Shown one piece after another: positions 6,533-35,968 of a stretch of 64,000 nucleotides of DNA; position 1 is the first letter of the stretch, and the number at the start of each line of letters is the position of its first letter. The DNA comes from Shinella kummerowiae. GTDB taxonomy: Bacteria > Pseudomonadota > Alphaproteobacteria > Rhizobiales > Rhizobiaceae. The translations under genes and the position numbers were made by a program. The notes below the pieces were generated by a model. That model saw nothing but the letters and a program-made list of their open reading frames with translations. It was not told where the DNA came from and did no database searches. The DNA lies in the NCBI RefSeq assembly GCF_009827055.1, contig NZ_WUMK01000004.1, positions 372,001 through 436,000 on the forward strand. Direction: 5' to 3'.

Positions 6533-7336
6533 ATGGAGACATTCGGTGAGCGACTAGCCTTCGCGCGCAGGCAGAAGGGCATGACACAGGACGACGTTGC
6601 GGCTCGGTTTCACATCAACCGGGTCAATATCAGCCAATGGGAAAGCAACACCACGAATCCGGAAACGCCACGTATTCCCGCGCTGGCTGAGATGCTCGAG
6701 ACAACGGTCGACTGGCTTCTGTCCGGCACCGGAACACCTCCCGCAAAGCAGCCAAAGAGGAAAAAGGAAACACTCGTTTCTTCTTACGATCCCGACAAGG
6801 TCGAACGCGATTCGGACCCGGATTGGGACGGGACCGGGGCCGGCGTTATTGATGGCCGGTTGAGTTATTCTCCCAAGCTTCCAGGCGGGATGCCAGAAAC
6901 AGCCGCCTCGCCAGGCATGGGCCTAGGCCGCATTGACGACGGTCGCGCCGCGCGCTTGGTCACTGGGGGTATCGCGACAGGCCATCCTGTTCTTAATGAA
7001 TGGGTGATCCCGCCAAGCTACGTTCGAAACGCCCTAGATGCATCACCATCGCAAGTTATGATCATGCCGGTCATCGGGCACTCTATGGAGCCGATGCTAA
7101 AGGCTAATGATCGTGTTTTGGTCGATATCTCGCAGAACGCTTGGGTTGGTGATGCGGTCTACGTGATTGACGACGGAGATACGGTGCTGCGGGCGAAGAC
7201 CGTCAAAAAAGTGACGGCATCAACCCCTCCACAGTACCGAATTGTATCCGAGGCCGCGCCGGAAGAAGTGGAAATTCTCAACGCCGATCAGTTCAAGATT
7301 GTCGGCCGCGTCGTCGGTCGTTTTACGAGGATGTGA
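6533..7336 (+). CDS. CI/LexA-like phage repressor, HTH plus S24 protease
   Basis: Lysogeny repressor (267 aa). An XRE helix-turn-helix spans about residues 5-62 (MTQDDVAARFHINRVNISQW). A flexible linker follows, then an S24/LexA peptidase domain from about residue 150. The catalytic serine is in GHSMEP (Ser184) and the lysine in VLRAK (Lys222); the spacing of 38 is right for LexA-type autocleavage. AG at 103-104 (TGAGVIDG) is a possible cleavage site. This predicts RecA-stimulated self-cleavage and SOS induction of the prophage. No ribosome-binding site is evident upstream of the ATG, so a leaderless mRNA is possible. Its stop overlaps the next gene (TGATG), so three downstream genes are probably expressed in the lysogen with it. 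Confidence 0.9.
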   Translation: METFGERLAFARRQKGMTQDDVAARFHINRVNISQWESNTTNPETPRIPALAEMLETTVDWLLSGTGTPPAKQPKRKKETLVSSYDPDKVERDSDPDWDGTGAGVIDGRLSYSPKLPGGMPETAASPGMGLGRIDDGRAARLVTGGIATGHPVLNEWVIPPSYVRNALDASPSQVMIMPVIGHSMEPMLKANDRVLVDISQNAWVGDAVYVIDDGDTVLRAKTVKKVTASTPPQYRIVSEAAPEEVEILNADQFKIVGRVVGRFTRM

Positions 7337-8106
7337 TGGGCGACGATCTCCAGCGGTTATCAGCTTTGATCGACCGGCTGGATTCAACGCCAGTGCAAGG
7401 AAGTCTCGAAGCACGCCGTAGGAACAAGGCGTTCAGTCGCGCCGCTATCAGCCGCATGTTTGATGGCGGCGGAACGTTTGGTGAAGCCGCTGGCACGATG
7501 CCCTGGCTGAACGGGCCAGATGCTGTGCAAAATCTTCGCGCCCTCAACGATGACCTCGGCGCGCAAATCGGGATGGTGAACCACATATTGGACACCTGGT
7601 TCAAACATGGGGAGCCCGTCGCCCCGCATTATCCGTTTCGGATCGCCGTCATCCTCCGCAAGATGAAGCGCCCCGACCTCGAATCCGATTTTCTCCGTGC
7701 CTTTGGAAGACATTTCATTTCTCATCACTATGGCGCTCGGAGCGCCGACCTCGGGACGAGGATGGAGAAGGTACTCGGCGAGCAGGTTTGCGATGAACTA
7801 TGGCTCGCGTCTGAAGCGCTCGAAGAAAGGCCTGTGGCCGCTCGCGGCGTCAGAAAGCTCGGTGTGTTCCCGCTCCACTCCGCGCCTGTTGCGGGCAGCG
7901 CCACGGCTCGCAACTTCACATTCGAGTTCTTATGCAAGCGATGCGGCGGCCGAAACATCAATGTTCCTGACGGACCCGATGATGGCGACATGGTGACATG
8001 CTCATCCTGCACGCTGGCTTTCGGCCCGTTTCCTGTCCTCAAAGAATACTGCAACTGGTTGGCGCTGGAGAAGATCAAAGACGACGAGATGGAGGGAATT
8101 CGATGA
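7336..8106 (+). CDS. Unknown cI-linked protein with C-terminal zinc ribbon
   Basis: Unrecognised protein of 256 aa. The N-terminal two thirds are mixed and soluble. Residues from about 205 carry a zinc ribbon (CKRCGG, then CSSC about 20 residues later) followed by a hydrophobic helix-like tail. The start is an ATG overlapping the repressor stop (TGATG), and the stop overlaps the next gene (ATGA). Being locked behind the repressor, it should be made in the lysogen, where phages often keep exclusion or defence genes. That role is inference; no catalytic motif was seen. Confidence 0.7.
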   Translation: MGDDLQRLSALIDRLDSTPVQGSLEARRRNKAFSRAAISRMFDGGGTFGEAAGTMPWLNGPDAVQNLRALNDDLGAQIGMVNHILDTWFKHGEPVAPHYPFRIAVILRKMKRPDLESDFLRAFGRHFISHHYGARSADLGTRMEKVLGEQVCDELWLASEALEERPVAARGVRKLGVFPLHSAPVAGSATARNFTFEFLCKRCGGRNINVPDGPDDGDMVTCSSCTLAFGPFPVLKEYCNWLALEKIKDDEMEGIR

Positions 8107-8294
8107 AAAAGACAAAGCCTCCCCGCGAACGCGCCGCCCGCGCCCTTTGCAGCCACTTCGGCGTACCCGAGAACATTGTGCGCGACAAAAAGCCTATGTG
8201 GACGCAATACCTGGATATGGCTGATGCCGCGCTTCAGGCCGCGTTGTCTCCGGAAGAATGGGAGCGCGTGAAGGCAGAAGGGCCGGAGGAGTGA
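8103..8294 (+). CDS. Small unknown cI-operon protein, 63 aa
   Basis: Basic N-terminus (MKKTKPPRERAARALC), then an acidic C-terminal half with AALSPEEWERVK. No known motif. Its ATG overlaps the stop of the 256-aa gene (ATGA) and its stop overlaps the GTG of the next gene, so it is the third of four coupled genes starting with the repressor. Confidence 0.65.
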   Translation: MKKTKPPRERAARALCSHFGVPENIVRDKKPMWTQYLDMADAALQAALSPEEWERVKAEGPEE

Positions 8295-8866
8295 ACCTCC
8301 TCGCAATCGATAGCCCAGGTACTCTGTGGGCAGCTATCGGCGTGGGCGTGATGATCGTCTTCTACTTTTCGGACAAGATCATTGCCGCTTTGATGGCCTT
8401 GGTTCGCAGGACGAAAGCAGCCAATGTGCCGGTGGTTGAGCGTCTTTCGCACACGAGGAGCGCCGAACATCCGAATTGGGAAATTCTCAATTTTTCGGTC
8501 CGCAATCGAGACGATCTGCGATGGACGATAGAGGCGTTGCGATTTTCATCCCCGCACCATTGTAAAGCGATCAATCAATCGGCCCTCATCGACCACATAG
8601 AGGGCGGCGACCCGAACCCGGATGCCGTTGATTTGGCTAGCCTCTCCAATGAAGTAGCCTTGAACTGGGAACTCGCACCGGCTGGGCAAAAGCGCCCCAC
8701 GCTGATCGCTGGCGATAATGACACCCACTACCTGACGATCTGGGTCTATCTGCCGCGCCGGAGTTCCGAAATCTTCTGTTCAAGCTCGCTTATTTTGCGG
8801 TCGAATCCCCAGAAGCGGGAAATGATAAAAATCGAATTCACGAGCCCCGCGATCACCAGCATATAG
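8291..8866 (+). CDS. Unknown membrane-anchored cI-operon protein
   Basis: Protein of 191 aa, GTG start at 8291 overlapping the upstream stop (GTGA). A single membrane helix lies at about residues 10-34 (TLWAAIGVGVMIVFYF), followed by a basic stretch (RRTK). The soluble domain looks beta-rich (WEILNFSVRNRDDLRW, HYLTIWVYLP), so an N-in single-pass anchor with a cytoplasmic domain is likely. Last gene of the cI operon. Its final 40 codons overlap a small gene on the other strand (8746-8904) by 121 bases. Function unknown; superinfection exclusion would fit the position. Confidence 0.65.
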   Translation: MNLLAIDSPGTLWAAIGVGVMIVFYFSDKIIAALMALVRRTKAANVPVVERLSHTRSAEHPNWEILNFSVRNRDDLRWTIEALRFSSPHHCKAINQSALIDHIEGGDPNPDAVDLASLSNEVALNWELAPAGQKRPTLIAGDNDTHYLTIWVYLPRRSSEIFCSSSLILRSNPQKREMIKIEFTSPAITSI

Positions 8867-8904
8867 ACGATCAGTTCGACATTCAGGCCGGTTACAGTTT
8901 CCAT
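8746..8904 (-). CDS. Membrane microprotein with coiled-coil tail, 52 aa
   Basis: Small protein with one strongly hydrophobic segment (about residues 9-28, LIVYMLVIAGLVNSIFIIS), a basic turn, and a heptad-like tail (RKISELEQKISELRRGR). ATG at 8904 follows AGGAG with good spacing. It is the second of two tandem small membrane genes on this strand, and its last 121 bases overlap the end of the gene on the plus strand. Holin-like, toxin-like or exclusion roles are possible. The clean ribosome site and protein-like composition support it. Confidence 0.6.
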   Translation of the reverse strand: METVTGLNVELIVYMLVIAGLVNSIFIISRFWGFDRKISELEQKISELRRGR

Positions 8905-11137: not shown

Positions 11138-12151
11138 ATGAACCGCAATGTTGATATCGACCGCGACGCTTCGCAAAGCATTGGCTCCATCGTCGGGAAT
11201 ATGATCAAGGGCTTCAGCCGCGAGAAGGTCTACGCCAGCGGCAAGATCTCCGCACCGGGCGTTTGGACGGCTGTTCCGATCGACGCCTACCACGGCGACA
11301 CGAAGCTGTTCGACGGGTTTTCCATTTCCAGCTCTGGCCTTCGCGCCGTGCTCCGCCGTCCGTCCGAGTACTGGGGCTTCTCCCCCTACAATCCGAAGCC
11401 GTTCGAGAAGGAGGAAAAGACCTCTCTTGAGTTCGGCAAGGCGGCACACATGCTGTTGCTCGGGGAAGACGGTTTCAAGGAACGGTATGCGCTCCGCCCG
11501 GAGAAATACCCTGCTGAAAAGGGCGAGATGAAGCCCTGGAACGGGAATGCCAACTGGTGCAAGGGCTGGCTGGCCGACCAGAAGAACGCTGGCCGCACAG
11601 TCATCACAGATACCGAAATCGGGCATATCCGGCATATGGCCGACGCTCTCTCCCGGAAAGAGCCTATCCGGCTCGGCATCCTCAATGGCCGTATCGAGCG
11701 TTCGATCTTCACCAAGCACGGCAATATCTGGCTGAAGGCCCGTCCCGACGTCGTGCCGAACGATAGCGGCGACTTCGTCGACCTGAAGACTGCAGCGTCC
11801 GTCGATGACGAAAGCCTGTCCAAGGCAATCTACCAGCACGGCTACCATGTGCAGGCCGGCTTGCTCCGCATGATCGTCCGCGAAGTGCTTGGCGCCGATG
11901 CCTTCACCTCGTTCACCTTCGTCTTCGTCGAGAAGGCCCCGCCCTACGACGTCCGCGTCATGCAGTTGAAGGATGAGGACATCGACCTCGGCGAGCGCCA
12001 GGCACGCAAAGCCATCGCGACGGTGCAGGAATGCCTGAAGCGTAAGCGCTGGCCCGGTTTCGACGGTTTCGACCGCGAATTTTCCTACACCGAAATGCCG
12101 TCGTGGGCTCGCACCCGAATTGAGAACGAACTCAACCGTGAGGCCGCATAG
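11138..12151 (+). CDS. RecE-like PD-(D/E)XK exonuclease
   Basis: Predicted 5'-3' double-strand exonuclease (337 aa) of the RecE/exonuclease VIII group. The nuclease core shows H104 in FGKAAHMLL, D204 in ARPDVVP and the D-x-K pair in FVDLKTA (D215, K217). Followed two bases later by RecT, the single-strand annealing partner. Together they form a Red-like recombination system for replication or repair of phage ends. AGGAG lies upstream of the ATG. Confidence 0.85.
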   Translation: MNRNVDIDRDASQSIGSIVGNMIKGFSREKVYASGKISAPGVWTAVPIDAYHGDTKLFDGFSISSSGLRAVLRRPSEYWGFSPYNPKPFEKEEKTSLEFGKAAHMLLLGEDGFKERYALRPEKYPAEKGEMKPWNGNANWCKGWLADQKNAGRTVITDTEIGHIRHMADALSRKEPIRLGILNGRIERSIFTKHGNIWLKARPDVVPNDSGDFVDLKTAASVDDESLSKAIYQHGYHVQAGLLRMIVREVLGADAFTSFTFVFVEKAPPYDVRVMQLKDEDIDLGERQARKAIATVQECLKRKRWPGFDGFDREFSYTEMPSWARTRIENELNREAA

Positions 12152-12153
12152 CC

Positions 12154-13299
12154 ATGAATCAGCTCGCAACGCAGCAGGAACGCCTGCCCATGGATTCCGT
12201 CGGCATCTCCAACGGATCGGCCGGTGCCAAGATCGCCCCGCAGAACCTTGCTGAGGTCGTGAAGTTCGCCGAGGTCATGTGCCGGGCCGATATCGCGCTC
12301 CCGAAGCACCTTCGCGGCAATGCCGGCGCCTGCATGGCTGTCGCTCTCCAGGCTCTGGAATGGCAGCTCTCGCCGTTCGCCGTTGCCAGCAAATCCTACG
12401 CGGTCAACGGCGCGATTGCCTATGAGGCGCAGCTTATCGCCGCCGTCGTAAACACCCGATCCGGCATCAAGGGCCGCCTGCGCTATCGCTACGAAGGTGA
12501 AGGCGACAAACTCACCTGCACCGTGACCGGCATCCTTGATGACGAGGAGTGCTCCTACACCACGCCGACGATCGGCAGCATCACGACGAAAAACTCCCCT
12601 CTCTGGAAGTCAGACCCGCAACAGCAGCTCGGCTATTTCGCCGCCCGGTCTTGGGCTCGCCGGCACTGCCCGGAAGTTATCCTTGGCGTTTACGACCGTG
12701 ACGAGGCGGAGCAGTTCCGTGGACCGGAGAATGCGAAGGACGTCACCCCGTCCGTCATGGATCGCTTGAAGGCCCAGAGCGCCACGCAGGAGCCGCAGGG
12801 CGATCGCGAGGGATTTAGCCGAGCATTCATCGCCGACCAGACGGAAGAACATTCTGACGCCATTACCGGCGAAATCATCGACAACCAGAATACCGACACG
12901 GCGGACCAGTCCCCCTCGGGTCATGTGTCGGTAGACGACGAGACCGCCCCTGTCTCGTCGCAAGAGGACGGAGGCGAGGCATTACCCCCGTCCGCTTCGT
13001 CTCCGTCCTCGTCCATTCTGACCGACGCCGACCGGGCGTTGTTCATTGAGTGCGCGTTCAAACTGTTCGCCATCACGGTTCAGGAAGATCTTGATGGGCC
13101 GGCGAAGCGCGGCGTGCTCGCGTCGGCAAAGGACAACTGGAAAGAGGCTATCCGGTCCGAGCATCATCCGAAGCTCGCCAGCATCTTCCTCGCGGCCGAT
13201 TCCGTCATCACCGGGAAGAACAAGGACCGGGCCGGCGCCATTCGTGAGGTGGCGGGCTGGCTGGAGTGTGCTCCCGAAGAGATCGGCGGTGCGGCATGA
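12154..13299 (+). CDS. recT: RecT-family single-strand annealing protein
   Basis: Recombinase (381 aa) that anneals complementary strands exposed by the RecE-like nuclease encoded just upstream. The conserved RecT core spans about residues 35-200 (ALPKHLRGNAGACMAVALQA, then WKSDPQQQLGYFAARSWARR). A long acidic, serine-rich linker follows, then a C-terminal helical domain (about 290-375) that is not part of the core. Stop overlaps the pentapeptide gene (ATGA). Confidence 0.88.
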   Translation: MNQLATQQERLPMDSVGISNGSAGAKIAPQNLAEVVKFAEVMCRADIALPKHLRGNAGACMAVALQALEWQLSPFAVASKSYAVNGAIAYEAQLIAAVVNTRSGIKGRLRYRYEGEGDKLTCTVTGILDDEECSYTTPTIGSITTKNSPLWKSDPQQQLGYFAARSWARRHCPEVILGVYDRDEAEQFRGPENAKDVTPSVMDRLKAQSATQEPQGDREGFSRAFIADQTEEHSDAITGEIIDNQNTDTADQSPSGHVSVDDETAPVSSQEDGGEALPPSASSPSSSILTDADRALFIECAFKLFAITVQEDLDGPAKRGVLASAKDNWKEAIRSEHHPKLASIFLAADSVITGKNKDRAGAIREVAGWLECAPEEIGGAA

Positions 13300-13772: not shown

Positions 13773-14201
13773 ATGAGTTGGCGTATCAACACAGCAGCCT
13801 TTCGCGATGAAGCCGAGCCACCGCGCCGTAGGCCGAAGAAGCGCGCCGACTATCTGTCGTTCCTTCACCAGCTTCCGTGTGTCGTCACGGGCCGTATGGG
13901 CGTTCAGGCCGCGCACCTCTCCTACGCCAATGTCTTTCACGGCCATTTCGGCCGCGGCAAAGGCACCAAGGCGCCCGACCGGTTCGCCCTGCCCCTATGC
14001 CCCGAGGAACACGCCGCCCAGCACGCCATGAACGAGCGCGCCTATTGGGAAGCCAAGGGCATCGACCCTCACGCGCTCGCCAACACGCTCTTTGGCCTCT
14101 GGAACGACTACGACGAGCCTGAGGCCATCACCTACTGCACCAACCGCATCATGCAGGGCCTGGCTGTTGCCGGCCGTCTGCCTTCGAGGGATTTGGCATG
14201 A
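13773..14201 (+). CDS. HNH-like nuclease, DUF968/Ref type
   Basis: Protein of 142 aa with the pattern of phage DUF968/Ref proteins: LPCVVTG near residue 34, QAAHLSY near 45, and LCPEEHAAQHAMNE near 75. The histidines and the cysteine pair fit a metal-bound HNH fold. Ref of phage P1 is a RecA-dependent nuclease, so a recombination role fits the RecE/RecT context. Assignment is by pattern and is moderate. Confidence 0.65.
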   Translation: MSWRINTAAFRDEAEPPRRRPKKRADYLSFLHQLPCVVTGRMGVQAAHLSYANVFHGHFGRGKGTKAPDRFALPLCPEEHAAQHAMNERAYWEAKGIDPHALANTLFGLWNDYDEPEAITYCTNRIMQGLAVAGRLPSRDLA

Positions 14202-14455
14202 CCGACAGCAAGAAGATAGACGACGGCGGGCCGGCTTGGAGCCCGATTGCCACGGCCGACAAGGATGCAGACCGCATGCTGCTCGGCATCGTCAGAAATG
14301 ACGTGCTCGAAGAAGTGCATATCGGCGGGTATCGCTATGCCATCAACGATGACGAGGTGTCTTGCTGGTGGAGTGATCAGGCCGATGACGAGGTCGTCCC
14401 GACCCATTGGGCTCCGATGATCCCGTTTGCCGCCCGGAAGGCAGGTGCCCAGTGA
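14198..14455 (+). CDS. Small phage protein, APRDG family (copy 3)
   Basis: Protein of 85 aa with WSPIATADKDADRMLLGI near residue 14 and THWAPMIPF near the end, the same layout as the two copies in the leftward operon. ATGA overlap with the HNH-like gene; its stop overlaps the next GTG. Confidence 0.6.
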   Translation: MTDSKKIDDGGPAWSPIATADKDADRMLLGIVRNDVLEEVHIGGYRYAINDDEVSCWWSDQADDEVVPTHWAPMIPFAARKAGAQ

Positions 14456-14865
14456 CCTCCTCCCCCTCAGAGACCATAGCTAAGGCACTTGAAGGCGAAT
14501 TCCGCCGTGCGGCCGTCAACTTGGTTGATACGCTCGTTCTTGAGCGCGAGACCAACGGCCAATCCAAAGAGTTCATGGACTGGGCGGTATTCATGACCGT
14601 CCGTGCATTCGAGGAGCAGACCGCCGCCCTCGCCCTCCAGTTAGAGGCGATGAAGCGGGAGATGGCAGAGAAGGACGAGCGGATTGCTGTGCTCACTGGC
14701 ATCGACAGTGCGCAAGACCTCGTCTCCGATTGGCTCAGCGAAGGAACGGACGATCTTCCCGATGACACTCCGGTTCGGATCGAGATCGGAAGCCGCACTG
14801 TTATCGGCGACAGGCTCTGCTCGCTCCGCCGCGCCCGCACCCTCGTCCAGGGAGAGAAGCCATGA
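14452..14865 (+). CDS. Hypothetical coiled-coil phage protein, 137 aa
   Basis: Unrecognised. A long helix (about residues 40-82, AFEEQTAALALQLEAMKREM) with heptad spacing is followed by a small mixed domain. GTG start at 14452 overlaps the previous stop (GTGA). Its last codon region overlaps the tnpB start (ATGA). Confidence 0.65.
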   Translation: MTSSPSETIAKALEGEFRRAAVNLVDTLVLERETNGQSKEFMDWAVFMTVRAFEEQTAALALQLEAMKREMAEKDERIAVLTGIDSAQDLVSDWLSEGTDDLPDDTPVRIEIGSRTVIGDRLCSLRRARTLVQGEKP

Positions 14866-16199
14866 GGATCAGCCGAGGCCACAAGTTCAAGCTCGACCCG
14901 ACTGACGCGCAGGCGGAAGCCTTCGCTCGTAACGTCGGCGTCTGCCGCGTGGTCTACAATCTCGCGCTGGAGCAACGCCGCGACCACTACCGTCAGTTCC
15001 GCCGCGCCACCGGATACGGCATTTCCTTCGCCTCCCAGTGCCGCGAACTGACCGAACTGCGCGCCGACGTCGAGTGGATCGCCGACGGATCGCTGACCGC
15101 CCAGCAACAGGCGCTCCGCGACCTGGCCGCAGCGTACTCCAACTTCTTTTCCGGCCGCGCCGAATACCCGACCTTCCGCCGAAAAGGCGTCAACGAAAGC
15201 TTCCGCTTCCAAGGGCGGGAGGTGACGTTCAGGCGATTGAACAAGTCGTGGGGTCTGGTGAAACTACCCAAGATCGGCGAGGTCCGCTTCCGCTGGACCC
15301 GCGACATTCCGAGCAAGTTGAAGAACGCCACCATCAGCCTCAATCCTCTCGGCTGGCACATCAGCTTCTCGACCGAGGTAGAGGTAGAGATCGGTCGCAA
15401 CTTCGGTCCTGCGGTCGGCGTGGACCGCGGCATCGTCGAAGCTGTCGCCTATTCCGACGGCACCTTTGCCGACTTCCCCAAGGCTCGGATAAAGGGCCTC
15501 GACAAGAAGGCGAGACGCGCCGCACGGGCGCTGTCGCGCTGCCGCAAAGGATCGAACCGCCGTAAGGTGGCCAAGGCGCGTGTCGCGGCACTTCGGGCGA
15601 AGGCGGCGCGGGTGCGAAAGCACTTCCACCACGTCGAGACGGCGCGCCTCGCGCGCAAGTTCGGCGTGGTGTGCATCGAGGCATTGAAGACGAGGGACAT
15701 GACGGCCTCGGCCAAGGGAACGGTCGCTGAACCAGGCCGCAACGTCCGCCAGAAGGCGGGGCTGAACCGGGCTATCTTGGAACGAGGCTGGCATCAGTTC
15801 GAGACCTTTCTATCCTACAAGATCGCCGCAAATGGCGGCACGCTCATCAAAGTTCCTGCCGCGTACACGAGCCAGACGTGCTCGGGGTGCGGCTCTATTT
15901 CCAAACACCACCGCAAGAGCCAAGCGGTGTTTGAGTGTTCCGATTGCGGGCATTCGGCTAATGCCGACACCAACGCCGCAATAAACATACTCAGGGCCGG
16001 AACGCGGCCTTCGGGGAGGGAGCCGGTCACGGCCCCGATGAACCGTAAATCTCCTCTGGAGGCGCCGGCTTCGTGGCCTGACGCCAGACAGGAAATCACC
16101 GTCCTTCAGGTCGGGGAAGACGTTAACCGTAAGGGCTCATCCGAGGGGGACGGCTCCGCCACTATCACATCTGACAACTCGAAAGGACGCGTCGAATGA
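14862..16199 (+). CDS. tnpB: TnpB, RNA-guided nuclease of the IS200/IS605 type
   Basis: Full-length TnpB (445 aa). The RuvC residues are intact: D188 in GVDRGI, E273 in VVCIEALK, D369 in NADTNAAI. The zinc knuckle is complete (CSGCGS, C340/C343; CSDCGH, C359/C362). A 65-residue tail follows RuvC-III. No TnpA transposase is nearby. The start overlaps the previous stop (ATGA) and the stop overlaps the next start (ATGA), so the gene is built into the phage operon as if native. TnpB normally uses a guide RNA made from the 3' end of its own gene and cuts DNA next to a short motif. Here it may still act as an RNA-guided nuclease. Codon use looks like its neighbours. Confidence 0.92.
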   Translation: MRISRGHKFKLDPTDAQAEAFARNVGVCRVVYNLALEQRRDHYRQFRRATGYGISFASQCRELTELRADVEWIADGSLTAQQQALRDLAAAYSNFFSGRAEYPTFRRKGVNESFRFQGREVTFRRLNKSWGLVKLPKIGEVRFRWTRDIPSKLKNATISLNPLGWHISFSTEVEVEIGRNFGPAVGVDRGIVEAVAYSDGTFADFPKARIKGLDKKARRAARALSRCRKGSNRRKVAKARVAALRAKAARVRKHFHHVETARLARKFGVVCIEALKTRDMTASAKGTVAEPGRNVRQKAGLNRAILERGWHQFETFLSYKIAANGGTLIKVPAAYTSQTCSGCGSISKHHRKSQAVFECSDCGHSANADTNAAINILRAGTRPSGREPVTAPMNRKSPLEAPASWPDARQEITVLQVGEDVNRKGSSEGDGSATITSDNSKGRVE

Positions 16200-16999
16200 A
16201 GATCGACAGCAGCTTGAAGATCCTTCGCGAAGCGATCGATCAGTTCAACCCGACGCATATCGTTTCGATGGTCTCAGGCGGCCAGGATAGCGCCGCATCC
16301 GACCAGGTGGCCGAAGAGCTAGACGTCAAGATCGACTTCCGCATCCACGGATTCACCCGCACAGGGATCAAAGAGACGACGGATCACGTCCGCGAGGTCT
16401 ATGGGCGGAAGGGCGAATATGTTGAAGCCGACGCCGGCACAGCCTATGAGGACTATGTGCTGCGCAAAGGCTTCTTCGGCAAGGGCATCGATGCGCATGG
16501 GTTCGCCTACCGGGTTCTGAAGGCTACGCCGTTCCGGAAGGCCGTCTCTCGCGAGATCAGACAGGGCAAGCGCGGCGTTCGCGTCCTTCTGCTTAATGGA
16601 GCCCGCAAGGACGAGAGCGAAAACCGCAAAAAGCACCTTCAGACCTACCGAGCCGATCCCGCATCGCCGGGCAACATCTGGGTCAACATCATCCACGACT
16701 GGACGCAAGACGACCGGGACGAATACCTCAAGCGTTGCCAGACGCCGATTAACCCGGTTGCCAAGGCCCTTTGCCGCTCTGGGGAGTGCATGTGCGGCAC
16801 GATGCAGACGCAGGCAGAACGCGTCGAAGCGGCGGCCCTCTACCCCAAATGGGGCGAGTGGCTGACCGAACTGGAGAAAGAGGCGATGCGCCTGCACGGC
16901 TTCGGCTGGGGGCAGAAATCGCCAAAGCCAGCGAAAGGCCAAGGCGATCTTTTCGCCCCCATGTGCAAGGACTGCATGACGAGGGGTGGCCAGGAATGA
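16196..16999 (+). CDS. PAPS-reductase/DndC-like ATP-pyrophosphatase family protein
   Basis: Protein of 267 aa with the PP-loop VSGGQDS at residues 26-32, which binds and cleaves ATP between alpha and beta phosphates. NGARKDESENR at about 134-144 matches the second conserved motif of the PAPS-reductase superfamily. Cysteines C193, C198 and C200 (CRSGECMC), with C181 nearby, could hold an iron-sulfur cluster as in DndC. A second CKDC pair is at 257-260. Phage members are common but mostly of unknown function; DNA or nucleotide modification is possible. No other dnd gene is present. Start overlaps the tnpB stop. Confidence 0.75.
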   Translation: MKIDSSLKILREAIDQFNPTHIVSMVSGGQDSAASDQVAEELDVKIDFRIHGFTRTGIKETTDHVREVYGRKGEYVEADAGTAYEDYVLRKGFFGKGIDAHGFAYRVLKATPFRKAVSREIRQGKRGVRVLLLNGARKDESENRKKHLQTYRADPASPGNIWVNIIHDWTQDDRDEYLKRCQTPINPVAKALCRSGECMCGTMQTQAERVEAAALYPKWGEWLTELEKEAMRLHGFGWGQKSPKPAKGQGDLFAPMCKDCMTRGGQE

Positions 17000-17799
17000 T
17001 CGAGAGAATAGTCCCGTCATTCAATGTCGACATTCACATGGCAGGAGACATTGCCGCAGTGGCTCACGTTCTCCAGCAGGAAGCCGCCCGGAAAGGTATG
17101 TGCGTAACGCTCACGCCGCAGACCTTTATTTACAGCGGCGGTCGAGAAGATGGCTTCCGCGTTGGTCTGATAAACTACCCACGGTTCCCAAAAACACCAG
17201 ACGACATAGTCGTCGAAGCCCGCGTCTTGGCCGACTGGCTGCGGGCCTACCTCGGCCAGGTAAGTTACAGCATCACAACGCCGACCGAGACTATCTGGAT
17301 GTCAGTGCGGAACGAGGATCCCGACATTAAGGCCGAACTATTGGCGGTCGCCGAACGCATGGCGGCGCTTGAAGATGGTGACGGCATGCGGTTTCCGACA
17401 AGAGCAGAGACCGCGTGGGCTCGCGAGGTCATCGAAAAAGCCAAACAGGAAGGTCATGCGGGGAGCACATCCTCCACCAGCACAAGTGGAACCGCCCCCT
17501 CTCTGGATAAGGAGAGAGGGGATGGCAATCCGGTCGGTTGTGGTATTCTCTCTAGAAATGCTTACGGAGATGGCCATGACAGTGCATTTCACCCCGCCGA
17601 GCGAACCGCCGAAGAACCCGCTACAGATGGCGATCGAGGCGCTGAAGGCGCAGGGCAAGGACGTCGCACCGGCGGACATTCCGGGCCTCTTCTGGGTGAA
17701 CGGGCAAGAGCTTACGATCAATCAGGTGATACAGGTGTCAGGAATTCGCTGACCGCAAACGCCTCTCGCTCCGCTCTGTCGAAGGAGACCGGAGAATGA
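16996..17799 (+). CDS. Unknown phage protein with unusual C-terminal extension
   Basis: Frame of 267 codons. The first 150 residues look like a normal protein (MIERIVPSFNVDIHMAGD; TETIWMSVRNEDPDIK). From about residue 155 the composition turns to Gly/Ser/Arg/Glu-rich, as in a frame read in the wrong phase, while another frame (17576-17752) looks protein-like there. Both ends overlap neighbours as ATGA, which favours the full length. A lost stop or frameshift is the alternative. Function unknown. Confidence 0.55.
   Translation: MIERIVPSFNVDIHMAGDIAAVAHVLQQEAARKGMCVTLTPQTFIYSGGREDGFRVGLINYPRFPKTPDDIVVEARVLADWLRAYLGQVSYSITTPTETIWMSVRNEDPDIKAELLAVAERMAALEDGDGMRFPTRAETAWAREVIEKAKQEGHAGSTSSTSTSGTAPSLDKERGDGNPVGCGILSRNAYGDGHDSAFHPAERTAEEPATDGDRGAEGAGQGRRTGGHSGPLLGERARAYDQSGDTGVRNSLTANASRSALSKETGE
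17496..17521 (+). promoter_or_regulatory. Hairpin covering a ribosome-binding site
   Basis: CCCCTCTC (17496-17503) pairs perfectly with GAGAGGGG (17514-17521). The right arm contains the GGAGAG ribosome site directly ahead of an ATG at 17522, which is in frame with the nested small gene. The stem would hide that site. Confidence 0.4.
17576..17752 (+). CDS. Nested small phage protein, 58 aa
   Basis: Lies inside the 16996-17799 frame in another phase. It reads MTVHFTPPSEPPKNPLQ, then AIEALKAQGKDVAPADIPG and a WVNGQELT ending, typical of a real small phage protein. ACGGAG lies 7 bases before the ATG. An upstream ATG at 17522 with GGAGAG would extend it to 76 aa. One of the two overlapping frames is probably the true one here, or both are translated. 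Confidence 0.5.
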   Translation: MTVHFTPPSEPPKNPLQMAIEALKAQGKDVAPADIPGLFWVNGQELTINQVIQVSGIR

Positions 17800-18113
17800 C
17801 AGCGCCGGCTGAACTTACCGATATCCAGTGGTGCGTCCTTGATCTGCTCTTGCGGGCAAAGAACAAGGGGGTGCCTCGCGTCAACCGGATGGAGCTTCTG
17901 CGTTCATCGTCGGTTCTCGACGGCGTCAAGGTGAAACTCGTGTTCGCCGCTCTAGGCATGTGCAATGGCGATTATGTCGAGTTGCACGGCCAGCACGATT
18001 TCGAAATTACGGCGGCCGGCGAGCAACTGTTCCTGGCGAGATATGCCAAACCGACGTCGGTCGCAGATATCGTTATTGCTCTGCCTGATAGGTCAAGGGA
18101 GGTGCTACAATGA
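17796..18113 (+). CDS. Hypothetical phage protein, 105 aa, MTAPA start
   Basis: Winged-helix-like pattern (DIQWCVLDLLLRAKNKGVPRV, then KVKLVFAALGMCNGDYVEL), so DNA binding is possible. First of three genes in a row that begin with the same 15 bases (AATGACAGCGCCGGC). AAGGAG upstream; ATGA overlap on both sides. Confidence 0.65.
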   Translation: MTAPAELTDIQWCVLDLLLRAKNKGVPRVNRMELLRSSSVLDGVKVKLVFAALGMCNGDYVELHGQHDFEITAAGEQLFLARYAKPTSVADIVIALPDRSREVLQ

Positions 18114-18295
18114 CAGCGCCGGCCCTGCCCTACATCTACCGCTGGAATCGCCAGGACCGCAAAGGCCAGCCCTGCGAGGTTCTTGCCCGCGGAACCATGA
18201 ATTCCTGCGCCGTCCGATTTGCAGACGGATACAGCATGGTCACGAGCCGCAATGCCTTGAAGAAGAATAAGGCGATCGACGAGGTGCGCAAATGA
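18110..18295 (+). CDS. Hypothetical small phage protein, 61 aa, MTAPA start
   Basis: Compact beta-rich protein (YIYRWNRQDRKGQPCEVLAR; RFADGYSMVTSRNALKK), similar in feel to small phage SH3-like proteins. Second of three genes with identical start sequence. GGGAGG ribosome site; ATGA overlaps at both ends. Confidence 0.65.
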   Translation: MTAPALPYIYRWNRQDRKGQPCEVLARGTMNSCAVRFADGYSMVTSRNALKKNKAIDEVRK

Positions 18296-18492
18296 CAGCG
18301 CCGGCTCTCGTCCAACCAGCGAAGCGAGTCCGCGCCAGTGAGCGCGCGTTGCGCATTGCCTTGAAGGTAATTCAGGACGCGGGGTTGCCTGTGGATAAGC
18401 TGTGCGTAACCGGTGGACAAATCGAAATCCATTGCGGCCACGTTGATGAAGCGGCGCCCTCACCCGACCATGGAGGCCTCAAGGATTGGTGA
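18292..18492 (+). CDS. Hypothetical small phage protein, 66 aa, MTAPA start
   Basis: Basic N-terminus (KRVRASERALRIALKVIQ) followed by LCVTGGQIEIHCGH, a short beta hairpin. Could be an excisionase-like or other small regulator next to the integrase, but no clear helix-turn-helix is visible. Third of the MTAPA set. Confidence 0.6.
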   Translation: MTAPALVQPAKRVRASERALRIALKVIQDAGLPVDKLCVTGGQIEIHCGHVDEAAPSPDHGGLKDW

Positions 18493-18500
18493 GGGATTCC

Positions 18501-19568
18501 ATGAAGGTCGACTATCCCGGCCTGATACGGCAAACGTTGCCGTCAGGCACGGTCATCTATCGCGTGCGCCCAAAGGGCCAACATGCGAAACGGATCCAAA
18601 TTGACGGGATACCGGGCACGGAAGAATTCAGTCGGCAATACAACCTTGCCCGCCGGGGCGTGAAGCCAGACCCGCAGAAGAAGCCGTCGGAGGAGGCTCT
18701 TCCTCAATCGATCGGCTGGCTCGTCCATACCTATCTCGAATACCTGGAAGAGCGGGTAAAGGCTGGGAACACCAGCGCAAAGACCGTCAAAAAGAAGCGC
18801 AATCTGCTGGCCAAGCTCATCGTAGACCCTGATCGGAAGATGCAGGTCCCGCGTGAGAAGCTGATTGAGATGCAGGACAAAATGGCTGCATCCCCGGCTC
18901 AAGCCGACGCCTTCATCGAGGCGGTAGCCGTCCTTTTTGATTGGGCGATCGAGCGTAAGCACATCAAGGAAAACACGGCACGCGGCATCAAGTCGGTCTA
19001 TAAAAAGGGCGATGGCGCCAAGCCTTGGAAGGCCGCAGACGTGACGGCATTCTTTGCCAGGCACAAGGCCGGGACCACGCCGCATGTTGCCATGTCGGTG
19101 CTCTTATGGACCGGATGCCGGATTGAGGACCTGACGATCCTCGGCCGCGACCATGAATGCGTCATTGATGGCATTGAGGCCCTTCGGTGGGTTCCGCTCA
19201 AGAAAGGCTCGGCCGAGGTCTGCATCCCACTCCTTGACCCGCTGAAGGCCGCTGTGCGCGCTCCCAAGGTTTTGCCGACGACGTATGTCGCGAAACGGGG
19301 CGGGAGCACCTATGCCAGTGGGGATGCCATGTCGGCCATGTTCAAGCGCTGGTGCCAGGATGCGGGGCTCGGGCACCTGTCTGCCCATGGCGTCCGAAAG
19401 GGCTTGGCAGAGGTGCTGGCTGAGATGGGGAGTTCGCAGTACGACATCATGGCCATCTTGGGCCATTCAGAAGCCAAAACGAGCGAGGTTTACACTCGTC
19501 GCGTCGAGCGCTGGAACCTTGCCAAGGCCGCGCTGGCGAAGGTCGGCAAGATGGGGCTCTGGGGATGA
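18501..19568 (+). CDS. int: Tyrosine recombinase, phage integrase
   Basis: Site-specific recombinase (355 aa) that inserts and excises the prophage. All catalytic residues are visible: R207 in TGCRIEDL, K234/235 in VPLKKGS, H296 and R299 in HGVRKG, H322 in LGHSEAK and the nucleophile Y331 in SEVYTRR. The core-binding helical domain spans about residues 70-165. ATG at 18501 follows GGTGAGGG; an upstream TTG (18486) is less likely. It ends 88 bases from the 3' end of tRNA-Leu, the expected attachment site. Confidence 0.92.
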   Translation: MKVDYPGLIRQTLPSGTVIYRVRPKGQHAKRIQIDGIPGTEEFSRQYNLARRGVKPDPQKKPSEEALPQSIGWLVHTYLEYLEERVKAGNTSAKTVKKKRNLLAKLIVDPDRKMQVPREKLIEMQDKMAASPAQADAFIEAVAVLFDWAIERKHIKENTARGIKSVYKKGDGAKPWKAADVTAFFARHKAGTTPHVAMSVLLWTGCRIEDLTILGRDHECVIDGIEALRWVPLKKGSAEVCIPLLDPLKAAVRAPKVLPTTYVAKRGGSTYASGDAMSAMFKRWCQDAGLGHLSAHGVRKGLAEVLAEMGSSQYDIMAILGHSEAKTSEVYTRRVERWNLAKAALAKVGKMGLWG

Positions 19569-19655: not shown

Positions 19656-19740
19656 TGGTGCGGTCGAGAAGACTCGAACTTCCACGGGTTGCCCCACAGC
19701 GACCTCAACGCTGCGCGTCTACCAATTCCGCCACGACCGC
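19656..19740 (-). tRNA. tRNA-Leu (GAG anticodon), probable phage attachment site
   Basis: 85 bases including an encoded CCA. Acceptor stem GCGGTCG/CGACCGC, anticodon stem CAGCG/CGCTG with loop TTGAGGT (anticodon GAG, reading CUC), T-arm GGAAG-TTCGAGT-CTTCT, and a long variable arm as expected for leucine. The phage integrase ends just beyond its 3' side, so the core attachment site is likely within the 3' half of the tRNA, the usual target of tyrosine integrases. Confidence 0.95.
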
Positions 19741-35709: not shown

Positions 35710-35799
35710 GGCTCCTTCCCTCAACGACAAAAAATTGCTCGTGAGCGACGCCGCCTCTTGCCAAAACACAGGCAAGGTCGTTATCTGAAGCCGACCTCG

Positions 35800-35968
35800 C
35801 TGGGAGAAGCTGGCCGCCTGAACAGGGTATGGCCGGTGCCGAAGGAGCAACCGCCCCGGAAACTCTCAGGCAAAAGGACCAGCAAGGTGCCGTCGGAACT
35901 CTGGAGAGAAGCGTTTTAGCAGCGCTCGCCGAAGGGATAACAATCTCAGGCGAAGGGACAGAGGGGGC
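35800..35968 (+). promoter_or_regulatory. Tandem glycine riboswitch (gcvT element)
   Basis: Two aptamers in a row. The first carries GCCGAAGGAGCAA, then AACTCTCAGGCAAAAGGAC (about 35839-35882). The second carries CGGAACTCTGGAGAGA, CGCCGAAGGG and ATCTCAGGCGAAGGGACAGA (about 35897-35963). These are the hallmark glycine-aptamer segments. Located directly upstream of gcvTHP, which it should switch on when glycine is high. Confidence 0.93.

What the first reader, a model, noticed from the sequence alone, without database searches (positions are those of the whole stretch)
14862..16199. Intact TnpB locked into a phage early operon by ATGA overlaps
The sequence shows a full TnpB with all RuvC and zinc residues, no TnpA, and four-base overlaps with both neighbours. 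An inserted IS element would normally carry its own ends and break the overlap chain. TnpB proteins are known RNA-guided nucleases. Inference: the phage has adopted it, perhaps for superinfection exclusion, anti-plasmid defence, or cutting of an empty attachment site.
Basis: partly seen in the sequence, partly recalled or inferred. Interest (0 to 1): 0.75.

Follow-up and report, generated by a model that had tools for sequence, protein, structure and literature searches.

The report
Stranded TnpB replacing a phage gene
An RNA-guided DNA-cutting gene left behind by a small transposon has taken over the start signal and the tail of a prophage gene, and the guide next to it still largely matches the intact version of that gene in sibling phages.

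Summary
In detail: 14862-16199 encodes an intact TnpB with ATGA overlaps on both sides and no adjacent tnpA. The inference that it lacks IS ends is wrong. A conserved IS200/IS605 right end (hairpin plus GAAGACGTTAA, 16093-16126) lies inside the ORF, which runs through it into phage DNA. That DNA (16127-16199) is the tail of a native phage gene, here called X. Three sibling prophages of the genus carry X, without tnpB, at this operon position; two of them also share the upstream junction with its start-codon context. No left end was found. Best reading: a TnpB element inserted near the 3' end of X after TCCAC (a plausible TAM), then a deletion removed the left end and nearly all of X and joined X's start to tnpB in frame. 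Both overlaps are thus inherited from X. Without a left end or an intact TnpA the element looks immobile. The default guide matches sibling X genes beside TCCAC in 16, 16 and 17 of 20 bases, so a homing or anti-sibling role is a testable hypothesis. Catalytic residues are intact. The guide-RNA scaffold breaks 5 of 28 consensus pairs, within the range of relatives (0-7). Activity is untested.

The parts
14862..16199 (+). chimeric tnpB ORF: first codons in the start context of phage gene X, then TnpB core, right end, X tail
14862..14870 (+). start ATGAGGATC, like the native ATGAAGATC that follows the same upstream gene end in the G010 and G013 prophages (35 of 39 bases across the junction in each)
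15985..16126 (+). predicted reRNA (omegaRNA) scaffold overlapping the tnpB 3' end
   Evidence: boundaries inferred by alignment
16093..16126 (+). IS200/IS605 right end: subterminal hairpin plus GAAGACGTTAA (10 of 15 relatives GAAGATGTTAA)
16127..16146 (+). default guide (first 20 nt after the right end), inside the retained X tail
   Evidence: guide role inferred from known TnpB biology
16127..16199 (+). retained 3' end of displaced phage gene X (RKGSSEGDGSAT...KGRVE stop), in the same frame as tnpB, with the leader of and overlap with the next gene
14452..14865 (+). upstream phage gene with a 3' end (..RTLVQGEKP) shared with sibling prophages
16196..16999 (+). PAPS-reductase-like phage gene downstream
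13773..14201 (+). DUF968 phage gene used to find the operon in relatives
11138..13299 (+). phage recombination genes: exonuclease (DUF3799) and RecT
18486..19568 (+). phage integrase beside a tRNA-Leu gene (19656-19740, minus strand)

Best explanation
A TnpB-bearing IS200/IS605 element inserted, in the orientation of the operon, near the 3' end of a phage early-operon gene (X), directly after TCCAC, and so acquired a guide beginning CCGTAAGGGCTC. A later deletion removed the element's left end and nearly all of X, joining the start of X in frame to about the third codon of tnpB. The chimeric gene now uses X's start and stop, which explains both ATGA overlaps. It should be unable to transpose: no left end was found, no tnpA is adjacent, and the only TnpA trace in the genome is broken. 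It would be translated with the early operon, and its mRNA is expected to be trimmed to a guide RNA. The predicted target is the intact X gene of sibling phages, where TCCAC lies beside the seed; the own locus should be spared because its copy is preceded by GTTAA. Shown: the right end, the X tail, the upstream junction and the target site in siblings. Inferred: order of events, exact 5' join, TAM, expression, cleavage.
For: Right end: 12 of 15 relatives have GAAGANGTTAA after a hairpin, 3 have a GTCAG type; distance from the zinc motif is 115-126 nt in ten relatives and 137 in the window, which has an extra stretch. Two copies in different replicons (phiKX1 and an Acetobacter plasmid) are 88% identical over 1,321 bp and stop at GTTAA. 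X tail: homology to three sibling prophages begins at the first base after GTTAA; local scores 28, 32 and 37, none of 2000 single-base shuffles reaching each; the same tails score 10-20 against the DNA after the right end of nine other elements. Synteny: in G001/L096, X lies between a homolog of the upstream gene and a PAPS-like gene, followed by a homolog of the window's next gene. Upstream junction: 35 of 39 bases match in G010 and in G013. Bases before the left end, read by eye in six relatives where a hairpin was found (of 11 scanned): TTCAT (3), TTCAC, TCCAC, GTCAT. Own genome: one TnpA relic, one TnpB, no X.
Against: No genome was found with X interrupted by a complete element; insertion then deletion is reconstructed, not seen. 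X is mosaic, so the displaced version is unknown. The three siblings were picked because they carry the tail motif, and shuffles do not correct for that: of 15 other genomes with a relative of the DUF968 gene, the motif was found in 3 (for 11 of the rest only about 1.5 kb of flank was scanned, for G003 11 kb). G001 does not share the upstream junction. The 5' join rests on short similarity; tnpB may itself have begun ATGAGGATC. The left-end pattern sought came from relatives only about 50% identical in protein. TCCAC ends in CCAC, one base off the TCAC measured for AmaTnpB, and matches exactly one relative's flank (L052).
Confidence: 0.7

Rival explanations
1. Functional add-on to the best explanation: a phage-adopted RNA-guided homing or exclusion nuclease. 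Selection keeps tnpB because it cuts the intact X gene of co-infecting or resident sibling phages, destroying them or converting them to the tnpB allele by RecT-aided recombination.
For: TCCAC plus the 12-base seed occurs in 2 siblings and with one seed mismatch in a third. Catalytic residues intact. 3 of 73 positions invariant in the other 12 sequences are changed, against 0-6 for those others. The scaffold breaks 5 of 28 consensus pairs, relatives 0-7. RecT and an exonuclease are in the operon. TnpB acts as a gene drive for IS elements in plasmids (PMC11870625, abstract and discussion).
Against: Mismatches to the sibling sites (3-4 of 20); TnpB can be mismatch-sensitive, depending on the TAM (PMC11043419, passages). 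Only one phage carries it. 2 of 5 genus genomes with X relatives lack the site. The lone scaffold fold is no better than shuffles. No expression or selection data.
Confidence: 0.32
2. Decaying passenger: a recent insertion-deletion scar without benefit, on the way to loss; the intact ORF only means that it is young.
For: No other copy at E <= 1e-30 in 394 family and 397 order genomes (own genome included in both; only the best few candidates per genome were scored). Right-end hairpin has two mismatched pairs (138-155, 142-151). Left end is missing.
Against: Full-length ORF with catalytic and zinc residues and open frame at both joins. The GACG in the right end, which I first took as decay, also occurs in a Bradyrhizobium element (L043), and broken scaffold pairs are no more frequent than in relatives.
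Confidence: 0.42
3. RNA-guided repressor of the TldR kind, acting on a host or phage promoter without cutting.
For: Prophage location, as in reported TldR cases (PMC13418256, passages).
Against: TldRs have an inactivated RuvC; all three catalytic residues are present here. The guide matches the tail of a coding gene. In the own genome TAM-plus-seed matches with up to 2 mismatches (8, one being the locus) do not exceed the reversed control (16).
Confidence: 0.04
4. The overlaps arose gradually by selection for translational coupling of an adopted tnpB.
For: Overlaps exist on both sides.
Against: The upstream junction sequence (G010, G013) and an X tail that overlaps the next gene (G001) occur in siblings without tnpB; overlaps are the rule in this operon.
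Confidence: 0.05

Closest known systems
TnpB of IS200/IS605 elements (ISDra2, AmaTnpB)
   Same: Same domains and catalytic residues; scaffold overlaps the tnpB 3' end; guide begins after the right end; flank motif YCAY is like the AmaTnpB TAM TCAC (PMC10278001, passages)
   Different: No left end, no tnpA; ORF reads through right end and guide and ends with a phage gene tail
TnpB-only element in Komagataeibacter phages phiKX1/phiKX2
   Same: 49% identical TnpB, right end of the same kind, inside a phage
   Different: The 1,321-bp unit shared with an Acetobacter plasmid has both ends, and its tnpB stops before the right end
Azospirillum ramasamyi plasmid IS200/IS605 element
   Same: Best TnpB match in the plasmid and phage collections (58%), same kind of right end
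   Different: tnpA lies directly upstream
Bradyrhizobium iriomotense tnpB fragments (L041, L043)
   Same: 62% and 65% identical over the C-terminal part; L043 shares the GAAGACGTTAA right end
   Different: Cut by contig ends, so not comparable in full
TldR prophage repressors
   Same: TnpB relatives retained in prophages
   Different: RuvC inactivated in TldR; intact here
Phage homing endonuclease genes
   Same: Would cut the allele that lacks the gene
   Different: RNA-guided by adjacent sequence; homing not shown

Membership tests
TnpB (IS200/IS605) | HTH, OrfB and zinc TNB domains | tested here: met
TnpB (IS200/IS605) | RuvC D-E-D triad and CxxC...CxxC zinc site | tested here: met
   D188, E273, D369; C340, C343, C359, C362
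TnpB (IS200/IS605) | reRNA scaffold at the 3' end with subterminal hairpin | tested here: inconclusive
   Aligns with 10 relatives; 18 of 28 consensus pairs have two-sided changes; window breaks 5 of 28, relatives 0-7; lone fold z -0.16, 79 of 200 shuffles at least as good
TnpB (IS200/IS605) | RNA-guided DNA cleavage next to a TAM | not testable with these tools
   needs biochemistry
Mobile IS200/IS605 or IS1341-like element | right end | tested here: met
Mobile IS200/IS605 or IS1341-like element | left end with hairpin upstream of tnpB | tested here: not met
   no match to the phiKX1/Acetobacter left-end hairpin (25 nt, up to 8 substitutions) in 14001-14900; native gene sequence runs into the tnpB start
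Mobile IS200/IS605 or IS1341-like element | TnpA in cis or trans | tested here: not met
   in the own genome only two Y1 transposase fragments at one place, the first with two stops
TldR | inactivated RuvC | tested here: not met
Homing endonuclease gene | cuts the allele lacking it and is copied in | not testable with these tools
   candidate site after TCCAC present in 3 siblings; activity untested

The most novel reading that the evidence does not exclude
A transposon nuclease that has lost transposition and become a phage-operon gene: an RNA-guided homing or exclusion nuclease whose guide is the tail of the very gene it replaced, aimed at sibling phages that still carry that gene.
Probability: 0.3. 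Interest if true: 0.7.

Novelty: new variant of a known kind. Interest (0 to 1): 0.42.

Why it matters
It shows by sequence how a TnpB can become a fixed, translationally coupled phage gene: one insertion and one deletion, with start, stop and guide all taken from the displaced gene. That is a concrete intermediate between a mobile IS nuclease and a possibly domesticated one, and it makes a sharp prediction about the target. It also warns that neat ATGA overlaps do not by themselves show long adoption.

Tried and rejected
Relatives of TnpB, of the upstream gene and of X in viral contigs: none confirmed. Family and order searches for TnpB at E <= 1e-30 found only the own genome among 394 and 397 genomes, but in the rows shown at most four candidates per genome were scored, and Rhizobium plasmids with about 50% identical TnpB exist, so this is not absence from the order. 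The pattern CACCCGTAAGGGCTC hit 24 viral contigs, none with the CTCTC context of X; I judge these chance. Eight weak DNA hits to the tail in the genus (that is apart from the own locus and the G020 leader) were read and are not X tails. PAPS-gene relatives (33 loci apart from the own ones) show no tnpB in the stretches fetched, but several have little upstream sequence (L005 31 bases, L022 481) and many are not the same operon; I rely on the three syntenic siblings. Scaffold decay as an argument against activity was dropped after recount. A second att copy was sought in the window and not found (best outside repeat 14 bases). For searches the gene at 16996 was cut to its first 145 codons (its frame is open to 17799).

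Full report
What is there. The ORF 14862-16199 is a complete TnpB. It aligns over residues 9-385 with ISDra2 TnpB of known structure (8h1j and 8bf8, E 1.7e-36); RuvC residues D188, E273, D369 and the four zinc cysteines are present. Against 12 alphaproteobacterial relatives it changes 3 of 73 positions that are invariant in the others; for those others the number is 0 to 6. I see no sign of protein decay. It lies in a prophage operon with an exonuclease, RecT, DUF968, a PAPS-reductase-like gene and an integrase next to a tRNA-Leu gene. By my gene starts, all 8 junctions between 13773 and 18492 are four-base overlaps.

Right end. Aligning the 3' ends of 15 related loci with the window shows one inside the ORF: AAATC, a hairpin, then GAAGACGTTAA, 16093-16126. 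Of the 15, ten have GAAGATGTTAA, L041 has GAAGAAGTTAA, L043 has GAAGACGTTAA like the window, and three (L055, L056, L057) have a different end of the GTCAG type. phiKX1 and an Acetobacter plasmid element are 88% identical over 1,321 bp in different contexts and end exactly at GTTAA. The 12 relatives translated stop at or before the right end; the window ORF continues. Between zinc motif and GTTAA the ten GATG relatives have 115-126 nt and the window 137.

What follows the right end. From 16127 on, the window DNA is the end of a phage gene, X. Three sibling prophages of the genus carry CCCTCTCCAC followed by CCGTAARGGCTC: G010 (L068), G013 (L069) and G001 (L113, identical over 8,259 bases to viral contig L096). 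Window protein tail RKGSSEGDGSATITSDNSKGRVE corresponds to RKGSADGSASGTKGVE in G001 and RKGSAGDGSATGTTGG in G013. Local alignment beats all 2000 single-base shuffles in each comparison (28, 32, 37; largest shuffled score 25-27); nine other IS right flanks score 10-20 against the same tails. The siblings were chosen by this motif, so the shuffles do not measure the whole search. Of 15 other genomes with a DUF968 relative, 3 showed the motif; for 11 of the other 12 only about 1.5 kb of flank was scanned, for G003 11 kb. In the genus the exact 15-mer CACCCGTAAGGGCTC occurs in 2 of 21 genomes, G010 and G013. The last bases before the next gene, AAAGGACGCGTCGA, are its own leader, found with one change in G004 and G020.

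Synteny. In G001/L096 the order is homolog of the upstream gene (33% over part), X (7325-7987, start chosen by me), PAPS-like gene (7984-8877), homolog of the window gene at 16996. Both PAPS-like proteins match phrog_424, though tblastn at 0.01 does not pair them. TnpB thus sits where X sits. X is mosaic: the three copies share a C-terminal half, 37-39% identical, with different N-termini, Lar-like in G013 (phrog_599, E 1e-7). In G010 another short gene lies between the upstream gene and X. Of 5 genus genomes with X relatives, 3 carry the tail with the site and 2 (G007, G014) do not. G000 itself has no X.

Left side. The end of the upstream gene and the start context, CACCCTCRTCCAGGGAGAGAAG.. 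ATGARGATC, are shared with G010 and G013, 35 of 39 bases in each; G001 does not share them. There is no room for a left end, and the left-end hairpin of phiKX1 and the Acetobacter element was not found in 14001-14900 within 8 substitutions of 25. Several TnpB relatives begin one residue later than window MRISR, others at the same place. I infer that ATGARGATC belongs to the displaced gene and that tnpB joins at about codon 3; this is the weakest link of the anatomy.

TAM and guide. Before the left end, read by eye in the six of 11 scanned relatives in which a hairpin was found, stand TTCAT (L044, L048, L053), TTCAC (L050), TCCAC (L052) and GTCAT (L051): YCAY. Siblings have TCCAC before the junction point. 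AmaTnpB has TAM TCAC (PMC10278001, passages); TCCAC is one base off that. The same paper reports that TnpB trims its own mRNA into guide RNA. The default guide agrees with sibling X sites in 17/20 (G001, one mismatch in the first 12), 16/20 (G010) and 16/20 (G013), the latter two with the first 12 bases identical. The own copy of the target is preceded by GTTAA, so it should be spared. In the own genome, 8 places match YCAYCCGTAAGGGCTC with up to 2 mismatches, one of them the locus itself, against 16 for the reversed control: no sign of a host target.

Does it work? For: an intact protein and a scaffold that aligns with relatives. In the 28-pair consensus of 11 sequences the window breaks 5 pairs, relatives 0 to 7, gaps counted as breaks. 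Among the window's breaks, 13-161 and 138-155 are unique among the 11, but the base behind the first (GACG) also occurs in L043, outside that set. The lone fold is no better than shuffles (z -0.16, 79 of 200). TnpB mismatch tolerance depends on the TAM (PMC11043419, passages). I keep activity below even odds. Recounting removed my earlier argument from scaffold decay, so I moved the passenger reading down by three points and the homing reading and the novel case up by two each.

Mobility. No left end and no adjacent tnpA; the only Y1 transposase matches in the genome are two fragments at one place on contig 3, the first with two stops. The element looks stranded.

Literature. Searches pairing TnpB with prophage and domestication, phage homing, superinfection, TldR, IS1341 and prophage, guide mismatch, homing endonuclease with gene conversion, and in-frame chimeras listed, by title and start of abstract, no description of an RuvC-intact TnpB replacing a phage gene in frame. 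Some lists were cut (20 of 29, 8 of 24, 10 of 31), and the library holds open-licence papers only, so this is no proof of absence. Related work seen: TldR in prophages (PMC13418256, passages), IS gene drive by TnpB in plasmids (PMC11870625, abstract and discussion), and TnpB-like genes beside CRISPR arrays in Thermus phages (PMC11437467, passages). That subscription papers on TnpB and selfish spread exist is my recollection and was not checked.

Verdict. Adoption is not shown. The site-specific prediction is what makes it worth a test.

Noticed in passing
35791-35891 (+): Glycine riboswitch, 58 bits against a gathering score of 32.
   Followed up: no
G000 contig 3, 214553-214896 (L123, L124): Broken Y1 (TnpA-type) transposase in two fragments, the first with two stops; the only TnpA trace found in the genome.
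   Followed up: partly
L096 and L113: Viral contig IMGVR_UViG_2891339218_000001 and the G001 prophage stretch are identical over 8,259 bases.
   Followed up: yes
L040:788-1501, L096:7325-7987, L039:2330-3148: Mosaic phage gene X: shared C-terminal half with swapped N-termini, Lar-like (restriction alleviation) in G013.
   Followed up: partly
L044:3896-5216: Komagataeibacter phage phiKX1 carries a 1,321-bp TnpB-only element, 88% identical to one on an Acetobacter plasmid, upstream of the terminase genes.
   Followed up: partly
13773-18492: By my gene starts all 8 gene junctions of this stretch are four-base ATGA or GTGA overlaps, so such overlaps are the local rule.
   Followed up: partly
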